Positions 2,989 to 10,421 of a stretch of 10,555 nt of DNA are shown here, in pieces. A program made the translations under genes and the position numbers. The DNA comes from Bacteroidales bacterium UBA7574 (GTDB lineage Bacteria > Bacteroidota > Bacteroidia > Bacteroidales > Paludibacteraceae): contig DLLA01000174.1 in NCBI GenBank assembly GCA_002479035.1, positions 1,064 through 11,618 of the forward strand, written 5' to 3'. Each line of letters opens with the position of its first letter. Within the stretch, counting starts at the first letter, position 1. Below the pieces are notes generated by a model. The model was not told the origin of the DNA and did no database searches. It worked only from the letters and a program-made list of their open reading frames with translations.

Positions 2989-4062
2989 ATGAAAACGAGA
3001 ACCTTAGTTTATAGCATCATATTGGGCATCAGCACTTTGTGTCTGCCAAGTTGCGATGATTGGCTCACCAAAGAGCCCCTATCTTCCGTCACACCCGAAC
3101 AGTACTTCACCACAGAAGCAGCCGTTCTTTCTTTTGTGGACGGACGCTACACTGATTTCCTTCCGAGCCATGGCGGATGGTCAAGCACCACGGGTTGGGA
3201 CTATGGGCGTTTCGCTGCCGATGCCACTTCCGACAACCAAATCAGTGCCGGCGGACCGGGCTATAAGTTCCTCGGCTTGTGGCTTGTACCGCAGACAGGC
3301 GGGGGCTACGACTTCAGCAATATCTACAAGTGCAACTGGTTCTTCTCGCAGGTACTGCCGCGCTACAATGCAGGCGGGATAAGCGGCGTAAAAGAAAACA
3401 TCGACCACTATATAGGCGAGATGTATTTCCTCCGCGCGTATGGCTATTTCGACAAACTGCAGGCGTTTGGCGATTTCCCTATTATCACCCGACCGCTCCC
3501 AGACAACAAAGACACCCTTATTGCTGCCAGTCATCGTATGCCGTCCGACTCTGTGGCACGTTTCATCATGCAGGACCTAGACCGTGCCGCATCGCTGATG
3601 ACCGCCAAGATGTCCAACAGCCGCATCTCACGTGAGGCTGCCCTGTTGCTCAAGTCGCGGGTGGCACTCTATGAGGGTTCTTTCCTCAAGAACTTTGCAG
3701 GCACGCCATTTGTGCCTGGCAACGCCGAATGGGTAGGGCTGCAGAAGGATTACAACCAAGGCTACACCTTCCCGCGCGGGGACATCAGTGCTGAGGCAAA
3801 GTGGTTCTTCACTCAGGCTATGGCAGCCGCCGAACAGGTAGCCGACGCCGCTGTCCTCACCGAGAACACGGGTATCGTGCAGCAGACAGAATCCGACCCC
3901 GCCAACCCTTATATGGATATGTTCGGTACTGAAGACTTGTATAGCACCCCTGAGGTCCATTCTCTGGTGTCCGTATGCCACCAATCTTGTGGCGCACAGC
4001 GTAGTCTATTATGCCCATCGTGGCAATGCCGGTACGGGCCTCACACGCGGTCTGGTGGATAG
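2989..4062 (+). CDS. SusD-like lipoprotein, N-terminal part (ends by frameshift)
   Basis: This is the first part of a SusD/RagB-family surface lipoprotein, the lid that captures ligand over the SusC barrel. It begins with a lipoprotein signal peptide: hydrophobic stretch at residues 6-19, then LPSC with the lipidated Cys22, followed by acidic residues and the family's CDDWLTKEPLSSVTPEQYF start. The TPR-like core is plain: EMYFLRAYGYFDKLQAFGDFP at about residues 144-164, then a conserved region through the ISREAALLLKSRVALYEG helix at about 213-230. Family resemblance stops after residue 323 (PEV). The last 34 residues (HSLVSVCHQ onward) are out-of-frame sequence rich in Cys, Ser and Arg. The gene starts 13 bases after susC, so the two are almost surely cotranscribed. 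As written it would give a truncated protein lacking the C-terminal third of the family fold. Confidence 0.85.
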   Translation: MKTRTLVYSIILGISTLCLPSCDDWLTKEPLSSVTPEQYFTTEAAVLSFVDGRYTDFLPSHGGWSSTTGWDYGRFAADATSDNQISAGGPGYKFLGLWLVPQTGGGYDFSNIYKCNWFFSQVLPRYNAGGISGVKENIDHYIGEMYFLRAYGYFDKLQAFGDFPIITRPLPDNKDTLIAASHRMPSDSVARFIMQDLDRAASLMTAKMSNSRISREAALLLKSRVALYEGSFLKNFAGTPFVPGNAEWVGLQKDYNQGYTFPRGDISAEAKWFFTQAMAAAEQVADAAVLTENTGIVQQTESDPANPYMDMFGTEDLYSTPEVHSLVSVCHQSCGAQRSLLCPSWQCRYGPHTRSGG

Positions 4063-4993
4063 TTACTTGATGAAAGACGGTCTGCCTGTCTATGCCAGTC
4101 CGCTCTATCGGGGCGATGAGTCGTTCACTGCCGTGCGTTCCGACCGCGACACACGTCTCTCCTGCTTCCTCAAAGAGCCGGGGCAACGCAACTATGTCTA
4201 TCCTACCACCGAACCCAATGGTGCCATTGAGATAGAGCCAATCCCGCAGTTCACGGGCGAGACCGAGACCTATGCCACCGGCTACTCACTCCGCAAAGGC
4301 AACTCCACCCAGCAGAAGCAATGCAAGCAAGGAGGTTCCACCACGGGCTGCATCACCTTCCGCAGTGCCGAAGCCCTGCTCAACTATATCGAGGCTTGCT
4401 ACGAAGCCAAGGGCTCACTGGACAGTAAAGCCGAGGGCTACTGGCGTGCACTTCGCAGCCGTGCAGGCGTGGACGAGGACTTCATCAAGACCATCGCTGC
4501 TACTGATATGAACCGGGAAGCCAAGAATGACTTCGGTGCCTACACCGCAGGGCAACTGATTGACGCTACCCGCTACAATATCCGCCGTGAACGCCGCTCC
4601 GAGTTCCTCGCAGAGGGCATGCGTTGGATGGACTTGATACGCTGGCGTGCGCTCGACCAACTCATCGACCATCCCTATCACCCCGAAGGCATACATATCT
4701 GGAGTGCAGGTATGCAAAAGATGTATGCGGATGCAGGTATCACGCTCATCGGCAATGGCACGGATAGTGCCAATGTGTCGCCGCAGAGCGATGGCGAGTA
4801 CTACAAACCCTACCGGCGCAACGCCAAGCAAGAGGGCTATGAGGGGCTGACATGGCACATGGCATACTATCTCTCGCCTATCAATGTCAAGGAGTTCCTC
4901 CTCACCTCCGCCGACGGTGCTGCCAAGGAGACCTCACCGCTCTACCAGAACCCTTATTGGAGCACCGACGCCGATTCGCCCGCCGAGAAATAG
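3989..4993 (+). CDS. SusD-like protein, C-terminal part in the shifted frame
   Basis: This open frame carries the rest of the SusD-family protein. The GTG at 3989 is only the first possible start. The same frame read upstream to 3959 gives ILWCPYATNL, which joins naturally to PEV of the N-terminal part, so this is a continuation and not a separate gene. SusD-family C-terminal landmarks are present: FRSAEALLNYIEACYEAKG, then a residue run ending RAGVDEDF, the strongly conserved IRRERRSEFLAEGMRWMDLIRW block (bases about 4580-4645), and a tail with YLSPINVKEF and LYQNPYW, typical of the family's end. No signal peptide exists in this piece, so on its own it would stay in the cytoplasm and not act. 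The TAG stop at 4991-4993 is followed closely by the convergent HDIG gene. Confidence 0.8.
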   Translation: MAHSVVYYAHRGNAGTGLTRGLVDSYLMKDGLPVYASPLYRGDESFTAVRSDRDTRLSCFLKEPGQRNYVYPTTEPNGAIEIEPIPQFTGETETYATGYSLRKGNSTQQKQCKQGGSTTGCITFRSAEALLNYIEACYEAKGSLDSKAEGYWRALRSRAGVDEDFIKTIAATDMNREAKNDFGAYTAGQLIDATRYNIRRERRSEFLAEGMRWMDLIRWRALDQLIDHPYHPEGIHIWSAGMQKMYADAGITLIGNGTDSANVSPQSDGEYYKPYRRNAKQEGYEGLTWHMAYYLSPINVKEFLLTSADGAAKETSPLYQNPYWSTDADSPAEK

Positions 4994-5588: not shown

Positions 5589-5592
5589 TTTA

Positions 5593-5674
5593 TTTACGAT
5601 TTTATTTACGATTTACGAATTTACGATGTACGATTTACCTAACTTATTTACGATTTACGAATTTACGATTTACG
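5593..5674. repeat. TTTACG array upstream of the HDIG gene
   Basis: Eight exact copies of TTTACG start at 5593, 5605, 5612, 5620, 5647, 5654, 5662 and 5669, mostly 7 or 8 bases apart, with degenerate copies near 5629 and 5634. A larger 26-base unit occurs twice, at 5602-5627 and 5644-5669 (period 42), so the array grew partly by duplicating a block. It begins five bases upstream of the HDIG start codon and fills the leader. Short ATTTACGA-type arrays are a pattern I recall from intergenic gaps of Bacteroidales. No function can be assigned from the sequence. Confidence 0.85.
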
Positions 5675-5726
5675 ATTTATTTGGAGATTTGAGAATTTGG
5701 TCATTTGTGCAGCATATCAATAATGC

Positions 5727-5801: not shown

Positions 5802-6656
5802 TTATTTTCCCCAACAGAGTTTGTCTTTGAGCGACTGCATGAAGCCGCACTCTCCCACTTGCACCAACTTAATGGTGCGCTGGGAACGCTCCACATGCAG
5901 GCTGACCGCGTCACTGAACACCTGACTGCGTCCGTCAATGCTCACCATATAATTGGCATTGCGGCTGTTGATATGGAGGTCTATCTTGCTGTCGTCCGGC
6001 ACCACCAAAGGACGCACATTCAGGCTGTGTGTGGCTACAGGTGACAGGATGATGGCATGGGTGTGCGGGTCCATAAGGGGTCCTCCTACGCTCAGATTAT
6101 AAGCCGTGGAGCCTGTGGGAGTAGCCATCAGCAATCCATCGGCTTTGTAGGTATGCAGGTGCTCTCCGTTGAGGCAGGTCTCTATGGAAATCATACTGCT
6201 CAGTCCTTGTTTGAGCACTGCCACCTCGTTGAGGGCATAGGGCGAAGCAATATATCCCCCAGCACTGCAAGTAACTTCCAACATGCTGCGCTGCTCGATA
6301 GTGTATTGATTGTGAATGAGTTGGTCGAGGATAGCATCCACATTGGCTGTCTGTACCTCTGCCAGAAATCCGAGGTGCCCGCAATTGATACCAAGAATAG
6401 GTATATTAAGGTGTCCGATAGTGGCTGCTGTTGTGAGGAAAGTGCCGTCTCCTCCCACAGACAGGGCAAAGTCAATGGGTTCGCCCGTGTGCAGGGTGTA
6501 GTCGTCCACAAGAGGGAACCGTCGCATATCGGGCTCCTGACGCAGTTCCTGTGAGAGGGCGATGTCTATGCCTCTGAGTTGCAGAAACTCAATGATATGT
6601 GCCACCTCGCTCTGCGTCTCGGAGCGCATGGTGTTGCCAAAAAGTGCTATGGTCAT
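5802..6656 (-). CDS. nadK: NAD kinase
   Basis: NadK phosphorylates NAD to NADP in the cytoplasm, the only known route to NADP in most bacteria, and is usually essential. The 284-residue length fits bacterial NadK. Motifs appear in the expected order: GGDGT at residues 68-72 with catalytic Asp70, the NCGHLGFLAE loop at 91-100, the Asn143-Glu144 pair (ALNEVAV) that binds the nucleotide, and the signature TPTGSTAYNLSVGGP at 179-193. The ATG at 6654-6656 gives the typical start MTIALFGN. Just upstream lies one copy of a 45-base repeat carrying the last codons of fmt, evidence that fmt once ran straight into nadK with a 4-base ATGA overlap. In this genome a lipoprotein gene now ends 30 bases before nadK, and I see no clear promoter of its own. 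Confidence 0.97.
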   Translation of the reverse strand: MTIALFGNTMRSETQSEVAHIIEFLQLRGIDIALSQELRQEPDMRRFPLVDDYTLHTGEPIDFALSVGGDGTFLTTAATIGHLNIPILGINCGHLGFLAEVQTANVDAILDQLIHNQYTIEQRSMLEVTCSAGGYIASPYALNEVAVLKQGLSSMISIETCLNGEHLHTYKADGLLMATPTGSTAYNLSVGGPLMDPHTHAIILSPVATHSLNVRPLVVPDDSKIDLHINSRNANYMVSIDGRSQVFSDAVSLHVERSQRTIKLVQVGECGFMQSLKDKLCWGK

Positions 6657-6682
6657 GGTCGTAGTCCGTTGAGGAGGGCTTG
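6638..6682. repeat. 45-base direct repeat, copy 1 (nadK start plus fmt-tail remnant)
   Basis: Identical over 45 bases to 9345-9389 (offset 2707); the identity stops sharply on both sides (C against G at each end). On the minus strand this copy holds a relic of the end of fmt (6653-6682, encoding QALLNGLRP and stop, with no fmt in front of it) overlapping the working start of nadK (6638-6656). The nadK half is in use; the fmt half is a non-functional leftover. Confidence 0.97.
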
Positions 6683-6686
6683 CCTA

Positions 6687-7232
6687 TTATTGTTTTGCTG
6701 GTAAGATGGTAGTCCATGTGTGCCGTTTGTCGTCCTGTACATACACAATACCTGCGTTACGTCTAAGAACACACCAATAATCATGGTAAGCATTGGTAGC
6801 AATGATATCATCTTCCTTTGTTTGAAAGTCCAATATATTTCCTTCCCAAGTTTTCAGTTTGTTATGAATAGACACATCTCTTGTTATTTCGCCAGAGCGT
6901 TCAATAAGCATAAACACATGGATATATTGTTCATTCTGCTGCAGGTATATCTGAATACCTGTGGACATAATGGTTGTATCTGTGCTATTATAGTAGGATA
7001 TCCCAGACCTTGTCCCGTTATCCACAAAATAGACATCTATAGTACTGTCTTCTCGTAGAAAAACTATAGAATCTCCTATTTCGTGAGGATAAAAATACGA
7101 CTTGTACACTTCCAATGAATCCAACAACTGTTGGTTCGTGTACTTGTGGAGTGCTTGAACACTTTCTGCATGAAACCAAGAGCATGCCGAAAGAGTGATG
7201 CATAGTCCTATACAAAATACAAGATGTCTCAT
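6687..7232 (-). CDS. Small lipoprotein of unknown function, partner of the C25 peptidase gene
   Basis: I do not recognise the family. The 181-residue product starts with a clear lipoprotein signal: a hydrophobic stretch at residues 4-14 and the lipobox LSAC with Cys17. Ser18 and Trp19 follow the Cys rather than acidic residues, so surface export is not obvious. The mature part has many Tyr, Asp, Ile and Thr residues in alternating patterns, suggesting a small beta-rich domain; no catalytic motif is visible. The start ATG lies 6 bases after the peptidase stop codon, so the two are very probably one transcript. The stop is 4 bases from the 45-base repeat. It is AT-rich like the peptidase gene and seems to have arrived with it. 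Possible roles, all inference: an inhibitor or periplasmic chaperone for the peptidase, or a surface anchor. Confidence 0.85.
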   Translation of the reverse strand: MRHLVFCIGLCITLSACSWFHAESVQALHKYTNQQLLDSLEVYKSYFYPHEIGDSIVFLREDSTIDVYFVDNGTRSGISYYNSTDTTIMSTGIQIYLQQNEQYIHVFMLIERSGEITRDVSIHNKLKTWEGNILDFQTKEDDIIATNAYHDYWCVLRRNAGIVYVQDDKRHTWTTILPAKQ

Positions 7233-7238
7233 AATAAT

Positions 7239-9299
7239 TTAGTTGTTAATGATTTTATCAATAATATATTCCCCATTGGATTGATGGTATTTCACTATGT
7301 AAATACCTTTAGGAATAGTTATGCTTATTGCGTTTGCATTAGTTGGATAATCATAATCTCCTCGTGTAATGAGACGACCATCCGTAGAAAAGATTTCAAA
7401 ACTAACAATGGACTTTTCTGTGTCTTTGTGTTGATATGTTGAACGATAACGGGGGAAGTAAGAACTGTTTGAACGACCATAAACTCTCAATGTAGGGTCT
7501 CCGATGAGACTATACCGTCTTATTGCTGCTAAACGGTCTGGGGAAGCAAGTCCCCTAAAATATTTTTTCTCTGCTTCATATAGCCACTTGCTAATTGTGA
7601 GACTTTGGTGATTTGTAGTTTTCTCGACAAGCACACTAAAGATTTTTTTAGTCAAGTTATTATTATTAGCATGAGCAGACAATGTTGTAGAACCATAAAA
7701 AGCAACCCCACCACATTCACGGTTCCTCACCCAAGCGGAGCCAAAGTTATTGTTTGTTTCGTAGGTATTTAGGGAACAAGCGATGCCTAATCCTATTGGG
7801 AACGGTACATCATTTTCCAATGCATATATAGTTTCCCCATTGATGATAGGATATGAGGAAACCATATATGGTGATGCAATGTATGATCCATATATTGCAT
7901 CATAACTATCTGTTATGGTTCCCCCATGTCCCCTATACAAAACTATTGAAGAATTTTGAATAGCCTCATGGAAATTAGAGAAATCAAGTCCGTCTCGACC
8001 GTCGTAAATAGTGTTCGTGATACTTGTTTCTTCGTTAATGTCATCTGCTATCTTTTTGATATTTTTATAAAAAGAGCATTCCCCATTTCCAGTTCCTGAT
8101 AATAGAGATATGGAACTACTATAAAAAGACAACTGCTGTTCTGTCATGATAGTCTTATGAATAATAGTATTGAGTTGTTGGCTAATAGAGGAACTATTCC
8201 AATCGTCTTCTTCTACAACCCATCTACCAACACATGGATGGTATTCATCATCGGAATAGGGATTATAAAACCATTTAGACCCCGTATAAGGCGGGATTTG
8301 CTCTAAACTACCTACTAATAGAACATAGTCAGGATCCCTTTCTTGTATGATATATCGTATTGCTTGAGGATAGCCCAATGCTCTCTGTTCATCAAGATAA
8401 ACGGTGGTTACATTATATCCTAAATCTGATTTGTACTCAACAAAAGTTTGAAGGTCTTGTTGCATATCTTGAGTTGCAGCAACTATTAGGAGTCGGGGAT
8501 GGTATCTTTCGCCACTCGGGACATCTATCCAAGGAAAATCTTTGAAGTATTCCATTGCAAACGCAGACTTAAAGGTTTGAGAATCCCGTATTCCTGCAAT
8601 TTCTGATAGTAAAGAGCCACCATCAAATGCGATTATTATGCGTCCGTGTTGCAACATTCGCAAGTTGCCTATAGTAGGGATATACTCAAAGGGGTGTATG
8701 GACAATGTAACTCCTATAGACCCGAATACATCGTAAGGCTGGCTCAGAGAGTAAAACTCTTCGGTGTACTCATTATAGTAGTGAGATGCATCTATGGTTG
8801 TGTATGTGGTGGAGCAGTAATCCTCATCACGTTCTATCTCCACATATTCTCCGTTGTCAGTAGTCTGTATTGCACTTCCCTTAATGGCAGGAGCAATGTA
8901 GTAATCAAGGTCTTTGTCAAAGACATCGGAGAAATCGACATGGATATCTATATTCTCAAAGTCGCAAGGTAACAATAGTTCTATAGGGAAGAACGGCAAC
9001 TCGGGGAAACCGATATTATCTGTTACATCATAGTCATCTGTTCCAACAATATCAATGCTGTGGAAATATCCATACTGATGGAACATCTCAGGATACCCTT
9101 CTTCTGCAATATCCACATCCGTTATTTCAAAATCAGGCAGGTTGAAATCAATAATATATTGATTTTCGGATACTATTATTTGATACGTTGGCGCTTCTAT
9201 CACAAAAGGGTCTATTCCTGTTGCACTCGCTGCTATCAGGGAGGTCGAGAGTAGCAGTAAGGTCAATAATAAATACCGTGTGTGGATAGAGAGTCTCAT
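7239..9299 (-). CDS. Gingipain-type C25 cysteine peptidase with type IX secretion tail
   Basis: A 686-residue exported protein (counted from the ATG at 9299) of peptidase family C25, the clan of gingipains. Residues 1-25 are a strong signal peptide (basic start, then a leucine-rich core). A long acidic N-terminal region to about residue 255 looks like a propeptide. The C25 core then shows PRLLIVAATQDM, DYVLLVGSLEQIP, VGRWVVEE, YRGHGG with the probable catalytic His458, GIACSLNTYETN with the probable nucleophile Cys508, and SLIGDPTLRVY. The last 80 or so residues look like a type A sorting domain (IFSTDGRLI, then PKGIYIVKYHQSNGEYIIDKII), which directs passage through the type IX system. A GTG at 9317 in the same frame would add six residues but falls inside the predicted promoter, so the ATG is preferred. 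Peptide-bond preference cannot be told. The gene is AT-rich compared with its neighbours and is followed after 6 bases by the lipoprotein gene. Confidence 0.9.
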   Translation of the reverse strand: MRLSIHTRYLLLTLLLLSTSLIAASATGIDPFVIEAPTYQIIVSENQYIIDFNLPDFEITDVDIAEEGYPEMFHQYGYFHSIDIVGTDDYDVTDNIGFPELPFFPIELLLPCDFENIDIHVDFSDVFDKDLDYYIAPAIKGSAIQTTDNGEYVEIERDEDYCSTTYTTIDASHYYNEYTEEFYSLSQPYDVFGSIGVTLSIHPFEYIPTIGNLRMLQHGRIIIAFDGGSLLSEIAGIRDSQTFKSAFAMEYFKDFPWIDVPSGERYHPRLLIVAATQDMQQDLQTFVEYKSDLGYNVTTVYLDEQRALGYPQAIRYIIQERDPDYVLLVGSLEQIPPYTGSKWFYNPYSDDEYHPCVGRWVVEEDDWNSSSISQQLNTIIHKTIMTEQQLSFYSSSISLLSGTGNGECSFYKNIKKIADDINEETSITNTIYDGRDGLDFSNFHEAIQNSSIVLYRGHGGTITDSYDAIYGSYIASPYMVSSYPIINGETIYALENDVPFPIGLGIACSLNTYETNNNFGSAWVRNRECGGVAFYGSTTLSAHANNNNLTKKIFSVLVEKTTNHQSLTISKWLYEAEKKYFRGLASPDRLAAIRRYSLIGDPTLRVYGRSNSSYFPRYRSTYQHKDTEKSIVSFEIFSTDGRLITRGDYDYPTNANAISITIPKGIYIVKYHQSNGEYIIDKIINN

Positions 9300-9316
9300 A
9301 CGCACATAATTTTTCA

Positions 9317-9348
9317 CAAAGGTACTACAAACTTATGAATTATGCAAA
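9317..9348 (-). promoter_or_regulatory. Bacteroides-type promoter of the peptidase-lipoprotein pair
   Basis: On the minus strand, TTTG (9348-9345) is followed by exactly 20 bases and then TACCTTTG (9324-9317), a full match to the TTTG / TAnnTTTG promoter of Bacteroidota. Transcription would start near 9310, giving a leader of roughly 10 bases before the ATG at 9299. The upstream TTTG belongs to the duplicated nadK codons at the very edge of the repeat, while the TACCTTTG box is cassette DNA. Confidence 0.6.
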
Positions 9349-9363
9349 AAGTGCTATGGTCAT
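9340..9363 (-). pseudogene. nadK start remnant, now an 8-codon open frame
   Basis: The first six codons of nadK are reproduced here by the 45-base repeat, overlapping the fmt stop as ATGA. After the repeat ends the frame reads one Ala codon and a stop, so it would encode only MTIALFA. It is a relic of the old operon junction; translational coupling from fmt would end here. Confidence 0.7.
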
Positions 9364-9389
9364 GGTCGTAGTCCGTTGAGGAGGGCTTG
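9345..9389. repeat. 45-base direct repeat, copy 2 (fmt end plus nadK-start remnant)
   Basis: Partner of 6638-6682, with no mismatches. Here the fmt half (9360-9389: nine codons and TGA) is the working end of the gene, and the nadK half (9345-9363) is the relic. Each of the two host genes therefore keeps an intact end in a different copy, as with sites flanking an element that integrates at a gene's 3' end. One edge of this copy also supplies the TTTG box of the peptidase promoter. Confidence 0.97.
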
Positions 9390-10307
9390 GGCGGTCATGC
9401 GCTTCTTGCCCGGGAGTTGCAGTTCCAGAATATCAATATAGCCGTCGGCACAAGGGAAGATGATATGCCCCTTCTGTTCGGCAAGGGATGCGGGTGCCAC
9501 CTTATATACTTTGGCTCCCTCCAACATCGTTGCTAAGGGGTGTGCGGGTAGCGGAGCACCTATCCATGCTGCGGGATAAGGACTGAGTCCGCGTACTTGG
9601 TTGCGTATATGCTCTGCTGTTTGGGTAAAGTCAATACGGCAGGTGTCCTTATATATCTTAGGTGCAGGTCGCAAGTCGGGCAGGTCGGGTTGCGGTATGA
9701 GGGGCAGCGGTTTGCCGTTGGCTTCGCAGTCGAGTATCAAATCCATGGTGCGGAGGACAAGTTGCGCTCCCATCACCATCAGGCGGTCATGCACGGAACC
9801 AACGTCCTCGTTGTCGCCAATGGGCAGGCGTTCCTGCAAGAGCATATCGCCTGTGTCAATGTCGTGCCGCAGCATGAATGTAGTGGCTCCTGTCTCGTGG
9901 TCGCCATTCATCACTGCCCAGTTGATGGGGGCTGCCCCACGGTACTGTGGAAGGAGTGCGGCATGGAGGTTGAAGGTGCCCAATCGGGGCATGGACCATA
10001 CCACTTCGGGCAGCATACGGAAGGCAACAACTATCTGTATGTCAGCGTGATAACTGCGCAGTTCGTCCAAGAAGGCAGGGTCTTTCAGCCGCTCGGGTTG
10101 CAGCACGGGCAGCCCTACTGACAGGGCATATTGCTTGACGGCAGAGTACTGCACCCGGTGCCCCCGCCCTGCGGGTTTGTCGGGCATCGTTACAACTGCC
10201 ACCACGTTGTAGCCGCCCTCCACCAAGGCGCGGAGACTCTCCACGGCAAAGTCGGGAGTGCCCATGTAGATGATACGTATTGATTTTTTGTCAATGCTCA
10301 TATTCAT
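9360..10307 (-). CDS. fmt: Methionyl-tRNA formyltransferase
   Basis: Fmt transfers a formyl group from 10-formyl-tetrahydrofolate to methionyl initiator tRNA, allowing normal bacterial translation start. The 315-residue length matches the family. Visible: the start RIIYMGTPDFAVESLRAL, the PDKPAGRGH loop at residues 42-50 (tRNA acceptor-binding loop), the folate/catalytic block FNLHAALLPQYRGAAPINWA with Asn113 and His115, and the third catalytic residue Asp151 in RHDIDTGDM. These correspond to Asn108, His110 and Asp146 of the E. coli enzyme. The C-terminal tRNA-binding domain follows (IDFTQTAEHIRNQVRGLSPYPAAW). Two ATGs are possible, 10307 and 10301; both lie a few residues before the conserved start. 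The last nine codons and stop lie in the 45-base repeat. A Bacteroides-type promoter is 83 bases upstream. Confidence 0.97.
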   Translation of the reverse strand: MNMSIDKKSIRIIYMGTPDFAVESLRALVEGGYNVVAVVTMPDKPAGRGHRVQYSAVKQYALSVGLPVLQPERLKDPAFLDELRSYHADIQIVVAFRMLPEVVWSMPRLGTFNLHAALLPQYRGAAPINWAVMNGDHETGATTFMLRHDIDTGDMLLQERLPIGDNEDVGSVHDRLMVMGAQLVLRTMDLILDCEANGKPLPLIPQPDLPDLRPAPKIYKDTCRIDFTQTAEHIRNQVRGLSPYPAAWIGAPLPAHPLATMLEGAKVYKVAPASLAEQKGHIIFPCADGYIDILELQLPGKKRMTAQALLNGLRP

Positions 10308-10389: not shown

Positions 10390-10421
10390 CAAAGTTACGA
10401 AAAAGTATCGACAACCGCAAA
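10390..10421 (-). promoter_or_regulatory. Bacteroides-type promoter of fmt
   Basis: On the minus strand, TTTG (10421-10418), 20 bases, then TAACTTTG (10397-10390) match the Bacteroidota consensus exactly in both boxes and in spacing. Transcription would start near 10383, leaving a leader of about 75 bases that contains the 9-base-pair hairpin. It probably drove fmt-nadK before the cassette arrived. The remaining 134 bases up to the window end show no gene or motif I can support. Confidence 0.65.

What the first reader, a model, noticed from the sequence alone, without database searches (positions are those of the whole stretch)
6638..9389. Peptidase-lipoprotein cassette inserted into the fmt-nadK junction with a 45-base duplication
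The 45 bases at 6638-6682 and 9345-9389 are identical and consist of the end of fmt overlapping the start of nadK. The 2,662 bases between them are AT-rich and encode only a C25 peptidase and a lipoprotein. The geometry leaves both essential genes intact and would give back an ATGA-overlapping operon on deletion. Forty-five bases is far longer than the duplications made by ordinary transposases, and no recombinase gene is present. This looks like a non-autonomous integrated islet with att-like ends, or capture by recombination between short homologies. A cargo that uses the overlap of two housekeeping genes as its landing site would be unusual.
Basis: partly seen in the sequence, partly recalled or inferred. 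Interest (0 to 1): 0.85.

Follow-up and report, generated by a model that had tools for sequence, protein, structure and literature searches.

The report
Secreted peptidase operon between housekeeping genes
A gut bacterium appears to have gained a two-gene unit, a secreted gingipain-like peptidase and a small lipoprotein that may be its inhibitor, between two neighbouring housekeeping genes, and a 45-base copy of the junction keeps both of those genes whole.

Summary
A perfect 45-bp direct repeat (6638-6682, 9345-9389) made of the fmt end and nadK start flanks a 2,662-bp islet with 38% GC against 53-56% around it. It encodes a type IX-secreted C25 peptidase and a lipoprotein. The window's genome is not held. 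In the 13 nearest readable genomes (NadK 69-74% identical) fmt runs directly into nadK (3-98 bp apart in the 12 measured) with no islet, so this is a lineage-specific insertion. The attachment-site idea gets no support: the 45-mer has no recombinase-like palindrome, 16 related C25 genes show no flanking repeat of 15 bp or more in the flanks held, and they sit beside various housekeeping genes. The islet hugs its genes, and its promoter appears to take its -33 TTTG from duplicated nadK codons. I favour a one-off microhomology or template-switch insertion that survived because the duplication keeps both genes whole. More interesting is the cargo. In 12 of 12 readable C25 loci of the family the next gene is a lipoprotein (background 5 of 91); these fall into about six groups and one is a serpin. 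This resembles Tannerella KLIKK-potempin pairs, so the islet is probably a peptidase-inhibitor operon. Inhibition and insertion mechanism are inferred, not shown.

The parts
6638..6682 (-). nadK-side copy of the 45-bp direct repeat (fmt end + nadK start; the nadK part is in use)
   Evidence: the repeat finder, 100% identity
9345..9389 (-). fmt-side copy of the 45-bp direct repeat (the fmt part is in use; the nadK part supplies TTTG of the islet promoter)
   Evidence: the repeat finder; promoter pattern
6683..9344 (-). inserted islet, 2,662 bp, 38% GC
   Evidence: absent between fmt and nadK in 13 relatives
9317..9348 (-). Bacteroidetes-type promoter-like site TTTG-N20-TAnnTTTG that straddles the fmt-side junction
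   Evidence: 2 exact matches in the window against 0.01 expected, spacing 20 only; the consensus itself is recalled
7239..9302 (-). C25 (gingipain-like) peptidase with signal peptide (by eye), prodomain-like region and T9SS type A tail; ATG at 9302 (alternative GTG at 9317)
   Evidence: PF01364 E 7e-27; TIGR04183 24.9 bits against cut-off 23; AF2 model pLDDT 83.7 matches gingipain catalytic and prodomain structures
7926..7928 (-). codon of the predicted catalytic His459 (motif YRGHGG)
   Evidence: aligned with gingipain R GHG; conserved in 90% or more of 27 sequences
7776..7778 (-). codon of the predicted catalytic Cys509 (motif GIACSLNTY)
   Evidence: aligned with gingipain R AC; conserved in 90% or more of 27 sequences
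6687..7232 (-). 181-aa lipoprotein (lipobox LSAC), proposed inhibitor/immunity partner of the peptidase
   Evidence: ORF; 6 hits in the protein search; a lipoprotein is the next gene in 12 of 12 readable family C25 loci
5802..6656 (-). nadK; its ATG lies 30 bp after the lipoprotein stop, so it is probably co-transcribed with the islet
   Evidence: PF20143/PF01513; no terminator-like site listed between them
9360..10307 (-). fmt
   Evidence: PF00551/PF02911
10390..10421 (-). promoter-like site upstream of fmt (same consensus)

Best explanation
In this Paludibacteraceae-like lineage a compact operon was inserted once between fmt and nadK: promoter, T9SS-secreted C25 peptidase, lipoprotein. The event was illegitimate. 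Most likely a replication or repair end switched into donor DNA at a TTTG-type microhomology in the nadK 5' codons and came back 45 bp upstream of where it left, which duplicated the junction. Only insertions that duplicate at least the ATGA overlap and the nadK start region leave both essential genes working, so survival alone explains why the repeat is exactly the end of fmt plus the start of nadK. The junction gave the operon its -33 box, and nadK now probably reads through from the islet. The cargo is a secreted peptidase plus a lipoprotein that probably inhibits it and so protects the producer. Shown: the repeat, the islet-free junction in relatives, the predicted peptidase fold with its catalytic residues, and the recurrent peptidase-lipoprotein pairing within the family. 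Inferred: the insertion mechanism, that it happened once and recently, the transcription, and the inhibition.
For: Repeat and islet. Islet-free fmt-nadK junction in the 12 best reference loci and one more genome. The only two exact TTTG-N20-TAnnTTTG matches in the window (0.01 expected) lie upstream of fmt and across the islet junction; L143 and L144 C25 genes have the same spacing of TTTG and TAATTTTG upstream (counted by eye output), so a donor TTTG at the joint is plausible. Only 42 bp precede the peptidase ATG and 4 bp follow the lipoprotein stop inside the islet. No exact flanking repeat of 15 bp or more at 16 other C25 genes in the flanks held (one 14-mer in L117), none of 25 bp or more around C25 in longer stretches. 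Among the 25 Pfam families listed for 71 neighbouring ORFs there are many housekeeping ones (topoisomerase, DNA polymerase I, SmpB, UvrC, SufE, YgbB, dUTPase) and no integrase or transposase. Lipoprotein next in 12 of 12 readable family loci, against 5 of 91 next genes and 54 of 997 ORFs, and 2 of 11 after other genes with a T9SS-like tail by my own pattern, one of the two being the caspase-like case L135. One partner is a serpin (PF00079 E 3e-98). Catalytic His/Cys and gingipain fold.
Against: In the 12 measured relatives fmt and nadK do not overlap, so the ATGA-overlapping empty site is deduced from the repeat alone. Template switching leaves no diagnostic mark; a lost integrase could look similar. 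Flanking repeats were sought only in flanks of about 1.5 kb or less, several C25 loci having almost none on one side, or as exact matches of 25 bp or more; 9 of 16 C25 genes lie within about 600 bp of a contig end. Outside the family only 2 of 5 readable C25 loci have a lipoprotein next. Of five hits to the window's own lipoprotein profile in fetched loci, two follow C25, one follows caspase-like ORFs, one is a lone fragment and one is cut by a contig start. Close lipoprotein relatives P0032 and P0034 sit on contigs whose lengths match no C25 hit, so the partner may exist without a near C25. The C25 gene beside the serpin has an in-frame stop. The lipoprotein could not be modelled (pLDDT 36.7), and inhibition was not tested.
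Confidence: 0.55

Rival explanations
1. Non-autonomous integrated element: the 45-bp repeats are attL/attR of a site-specific recombinase encoded elsewhere or since lost; integration at the fmt 3' end rebuilt the gene, as islands do.
For: A direct repeat that rebuilds a gene 3' end is the classic island geometry (established knowledge, recalled); low-GC cargo.
Against: No core-type inverted repeat in the 45-mer (253 of 500 shuffles as good); almost no non-coding DNA inside the islet for arm sites; no recombinase seen in the window; no comparable repeat at 16 other C25 genes in the flanks held, which sit at unrelated sites; no hits for the C25 protein in phages or plasmids, for the lipoprotein in plasmids, or for either alignment or a 30-base piece of the repeat in viral contigs.
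Confidence: 0.15
2. Minimal-mobile-element behaviour: the islet moves between strains by ordinary homologous recombination in the conserved fmt and nadK flanks; the 45-bp repeat is a relic of the first capture.
For: Recombinase-free cassette between conserved genes, as described for Neisseria drg at leuS/dam with 40.5% against 52% GC (PMC4269198: start of abstract, one body passage); other C25 modules also sit among housekeeping genes.
Against: No second strain with and without the islet could be compared; natural competence of this lineage is unknown. Compatible with, rather than opposed to, the best explanation.
Confidence: 0.2
3. Assembly artefact: the islet lies elsewhere and was joined through a short overlap.
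For: 45 bp is shorter than a short read and no reads were seen; the C25 and lipoprotein clusters are listed on 8 and 7 contigs, but their junctions could not be read.
Against: A false join would still need 45 bp of the fmt-nadK junction at both islet ends. A promoter-like site completed exactly at the junction also argues for a real joint.
Confidence: 0.08
4. The lipoprotein is not an inhibitor but a surface anchor, activator or substrate receptor of the peptidase.
For: Position and lipobox fit an anchor too; the window's own lipoprotein matches no known inhibitor family.
Against: Partners fall into about six sequence groups and one is a serpin; in Tannerella a similar arrangement is reported as inhibitory (PMC7296668 passages).
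Confidence: 0.3

Closest known systems
KLIKK peptidase / potempin pairs of Tannerella forsythia
   Same: T9SS-secreted peptidase gene next to a small lipoprotein gene; the lipoproteins of different pairs share no significant similarity (PMC4404884 passages); described as specific inhibitors, with more variation in the protease than in the inhibitor for one pair (PMC7296668 passages, citing unpublished data).
   Different: Here the peptidase is family C25 and does not end in KLIKK, the lipoprotein lies downstream rather than upstream, and the lipoprotein profile A2 matches no solved structure at E 1.
Gingipains RgpB and Kgp (family C25)
   Same: Predicted catalytic fold, His/Cys pair and prodomain-like N-terminus, with a T9SS tail.
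   Different: 16-18% identity in the structural alignments, no adhesin domains found, paired with a lipoprotein gene.
Minimal mobile elements of Neisseria
   Same: Recombinase-free cassette between conserved housekeeping genes with lower GC (PMC4269198: start of abstract, passage).
   Different: Replacement by other cargo at this junction was not seen in 13 relatives; here a 45-bp direct repeat flanks the cargo.
Genomic islands with att direct repeats at gene 3' ends (recalled)
   Same: The repeat rebuilds the end of a gene.
   Different: No integrase, no core palindrome, no arm-site space.

Membership tests
Peptidase family C25 | Pfam PF01364 match above the curated cut-off | tested here: met
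   95 bits against 23
Peptidase family C25 | Catalytic His and Cys aligned with gingipain | tested here: met
   GHG and AC motifs aligned; His459 and Cys509 conserved in 90% or more of 27 sequences
T9SS type A cargo | C-terminal sorting domain TIGR04183 | tested here: met
   24.9 bits against cut-off 23, just above
PorU2 sortase (NF052324) | Score above 450 bits | tested here: not met
   32.4 bits
KLIKK peptidase-potempin pair | KLIKK C-terminus of the peptidase | tested here: not met
   Ends KIINN
KLIKK peptidase-potempin pair | Lipoprotein inhibits its own peptidase | not testable with these tools
   Needs biochemistry
KLIKK peptidase-potempin pair | Lipoprotein gene directly upstream of the peptidase | tested here: not met
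   It is adjacent but downstream, in the window and in 12 of 12 readable family loci
Integrative element with att sites | Recombinase gene in the element | tested here: not met
   Two genes only
Integrative element with att sites | Core-type inverted repeat in the duplicated sequence | tested here: not met
   253 of 500 shuffles as good
Minimal mobile element | Different cargo between the same genes in relatives | tested here: inconclusive

The most novel reading that the evidence does not exclude
C25 peptidase plus lipoprotein-inhibitor operons are a dispersed, recombinase-free class of effector-immunity-like cassettes in gut Bacteroidales. They drop into housekeeping gene junctions by a recurrent process that leaves long target duplications, so that each insertion is scarless to its host and precisely reversible by slippage between the repeats.
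Probability: 0.12. Interest if true: 0.7.

Novelty: new variant of a known kind. Interest (0 to 1): 0.42.

Why it matters
If the pairing holds, family C25 peptidases of gut Bacteroidales come with dedicated, diverse lipoprotein inhibitors, as KLIKK peptidases do in one oral species. That would be a new source of specific inhibitors of gingipain-type peptidases and a sign that self-protection is a general need of T9SS peptidases. The islet also shows how a cassette can enter an overlapping pair of essential genes without harm, through a duplication that viability itself selects.

Tried and rejected
Rejected: att or integrase reading; plasmid, phage or viral origin (no confirmed hits: C25 in phages, plasmids and viral contigs, lipoprotein in plasmids and viral contigs, a 30-base repeat piece in viral contigs); a structured RNA in the window (Rfam gathering, none). 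The sigma-70 and terminator scans gave chance levels. Low GC alone is not proof of recent transfer: 6 of 6 C25 genes measured (of 16) were AT-rich against their own locus.

Led nowhere: the AF2 model of the lipoprotein (pLDDT 36.7) was not used for fold searches. The first genome-contig scan with one NadK found nothing; an alignment found 208 loci, of which 80 were kept. A family-wide NadK search did not complete, so relatives come from those 80 loci and from 151 genomes of the genus, drawn evenly from a larger group, of which 141 matched and 30 loci were given. Lipoprotein profile A2 gave 0 of 12 and 3 weak hits in 358 family genomes. Family and order C25 searches scored at most 3 candidates a genome, so their counts are lower bounds. 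Paper searches on illegitimate recombination with duplications gave 0 and 3 listings not followed; on islets with direct repeats 12 listings not opened; 'Paludibacteraceae' with 'peptidase C25' gave 0. Passages of PMC5445135 were read and not used.

Full report
What is there. Two identical 45-bp direct repeats lie at 6638-6682 and 9345-9389. Read on the minus strand, each holds the last nine codons and stop of fmt and, through an ATGA overlap, the first 19 bases of nadK. Between them are 2,662 bp with 38.0% GC, against 52.9% for nadK, 56.4% for fmt and 53.5% for the left flank; third-position GC is 33-36% in the two islet genes and 61-63% in four host genes. fmt and nadK are full length with their expected Pfam domains.

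The cargo. The first islet gene is a 687-aa (or 692-aa) C25 peptidase (PF01364 E 7e-27) with a T9SS type A sorting tail just above the curated cut-off; it scores only 32 bits against the 450 required of PorU2. A model from 27 sequences has pLDDT 83.7, and its best solved matches are catalytic and prodomain structures of gingipains K and R. The GHG and AC motifs align with gingipain R, placing His459 and Cys509 as the predicted pair; both are conserved in at least 90% of the 27 sequences. The second gene is a 181-aa lipoprotein without Pfam or NCBIfam match and with 6 hits in the protein search. Three pairs of C25 and lipoprotein hits share contig lengths (8028, 9328, 8854), which suggests that the genes travel together; two close lipoproteins, P0032 and P0034, sit on contigs whose lengths match none of the 30 C25 hits (inference either way).

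Empty sites. The window's own genome is not held. The 80 NadK loci kept from reference genomes reach 74% identity; NadK sequences 84-95% identical exist, but their contigs could not be opened. In 12 of 80 (L001-L012) fmt lies directly upstream of nadK; in 61 the order is nadK then fmt on the same strand; in 4 fmt is on the other strand; in 3 fmt was not found. In those 12 the fmt stop and nadK start are 3 to 98 bp apart and nothing is inserted. Of 30 further loci, 10 have this order; 9 of the 10 are genomes already counted and one, L089, is new. So in 13 genomes the junction is empty, and the islet is an insertion in the window's lineage. In the 12 measured the two genes do not overlap, so the overlapping empty site is read from the repeat itself.

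Junctions. The islet hugs its genes: 42 bp precede the peptidase ATG and 4 bp follow the lipoprotein stop. The Bacteroidetes promoter pattern TTTG-N20-TAnnTTTG (consensus recalled, only this spacing searched) occurs exactly twice in the window, 0.01 expected: upstream of fmt (10390-10421) and at 9317-9348. In the latter the TTTG is the last four bases of the fmt-side repeat copy, that is, nadK codons. Either the donor had TTTG there, a 4-base microhomology at the joint, or the insertion built the promoter. nadK starts 30 bp after the lipoprotein stop with no terminator-like site listed between, so it is probably read from the islet operon.

Is it an attachment site? The 45-mer holds no core-type inverted repeat (253 of 500 shuffles as good), there is no recombinase and little room for arm sites. 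For 17 C25 entries (16 genes, one split in two) no exact flanking repeat of 15 bp or more was found, with one 14-mer in L117; flanks were about 1.5 kb or less and several loci had almost none on one side. In 97 longer loci (80 NadK loci and 17 others, 14 of them with C25; 1.37 Mb) 23 exact repeats of 25 bp or more remain after low-complexity ones were dropped, and none flanks a C25 module. The 71 ORFs taken near 13 C25 loci match 78 Pfam families; among the 25 shown many are housekeeping (topoisomerase, DNA polymerase I, SmpB, UvrC, SufE, YgbB, dUTPase) and none is an integrase or transposase; the other 53 were not listed. Searches of phages, plasmids and viral contigs gave no confirmed hit.

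A recurrent pair. C25 relatives at E 1e-30 or better occur in 15 of 358 family genomes (17 matches, 16 genes; a lower bound, since at most 3 candidates a genome were scored). Of the 16 genes, 4 have no readable downstream ORF before the contig end; in 12 of the other 12 the next same-strand ORF, 0-60 bp downstream, has a lipobox by my pattern. Background with the same pattern and slightly different ORF rules: 54 of 997 ORFs and 5 of 91 next genes after large genes. After other genes with a T9SS-like tail (my own, slightly wider patterns) it is 2 of 11, one of the two following a caspase-like ORF in L135. Three loci carry tandem lipoproteins of one kind (L142, L143, L145). By BLASTP the partners form about six groups, and one, in L137, is a serpin (PF00079 E 3e-98), although its C25 gene has an in-frame stop. 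Of five hits to the window's own lipoprotein profile in these loci, two follow C25, one follows caspase-like ORFs, one is a lone fragment and one is cut by a contig start. Outside the family the link weakens: 8 of 393 order genomes matched, and 2 of 5 readable loci have a lipoprotein next (L148 by the pattern, L151 by eye).

Reading. Tannerella KLIKK peptidases are each preceded by a small lipoprotein gene, mutually dissimilar (PMC4404884 passages), described as inhibitors of the adjacent peptidase (PMC7296668 passages, which cite unpublished data). The same logic fits here with the order reversed and another peptidase family, so I call the lipoprotein a probable inhibitor. For the insertion I favour illegitimate, microhomology-aided copying with return 45 bp upstream; viability selects such duplications at an overlapping essential pair. 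This step is inference. The recombinase-free cassette also resembles the minimal mobile elements of Neisseria (PMC4269198: start of abstract, one body passage).

Verdict.

Noticed in passing
window 5589-5679; L002 16095-16123; L004 1395-1471; L131 683-827: Tandem repeats with a 7-bp unit whose sequence differs from array to array are common in this family: period 7 is the most frequent class among intergenic arrays (56 of 172 in 80 loci, in 34 loci), but also among arrays overlapping ORFs (33 of 109), so it is not purely intergenic. TAACTGA heptamer arrays in five other Bacteroidetes are reported in PMC4679880 (abstract and passages).
   Followed up: partly
L013-L080 against L001-L012: Gene order around nadK and fmt is swapped: nadK then fmt in 61 of 80 loci, fmt then nadK in 12, as tandem duplication and loss could give.
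   Followed up: no
L143 8221-13185; L144 309-4782: A TPR-domain lipoprotein-like gene lies downstream of the C25 module in L143 but its relative lies upstream in L144, with the module itself 77% identical.
   Followed up: no
L145 34-1419; L142 10150-11439: Tandem lipoprotein genes after C25 share identical 28-31 bp stretches at or near their 3' ends, 708-709 bp apart, which hints at recombination or recent duplication of the partner gene.
   Followed up: no
L131, L132, L138, L139, L140, L146, L147, L116, L119: In 9 of 16 C25 loci the gene lies within about 600 bp of a contig end, suggesting strain-variable or repeated surroundings.
   Followed up: no
window 2989-4993: Two overlapping ORFs in different frames (2989-4062, 3989-4993) read by eye like the halves of one SusD-type protein, after a SusC-type ORF; a frameshift or sequencing error is likely.
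   Followed up: no
L134 8639-8911: A 90-aa C-terminal fragment of the lipoprotein family stands alone in the genome that also holds the L133 pair.
   Followed up: no
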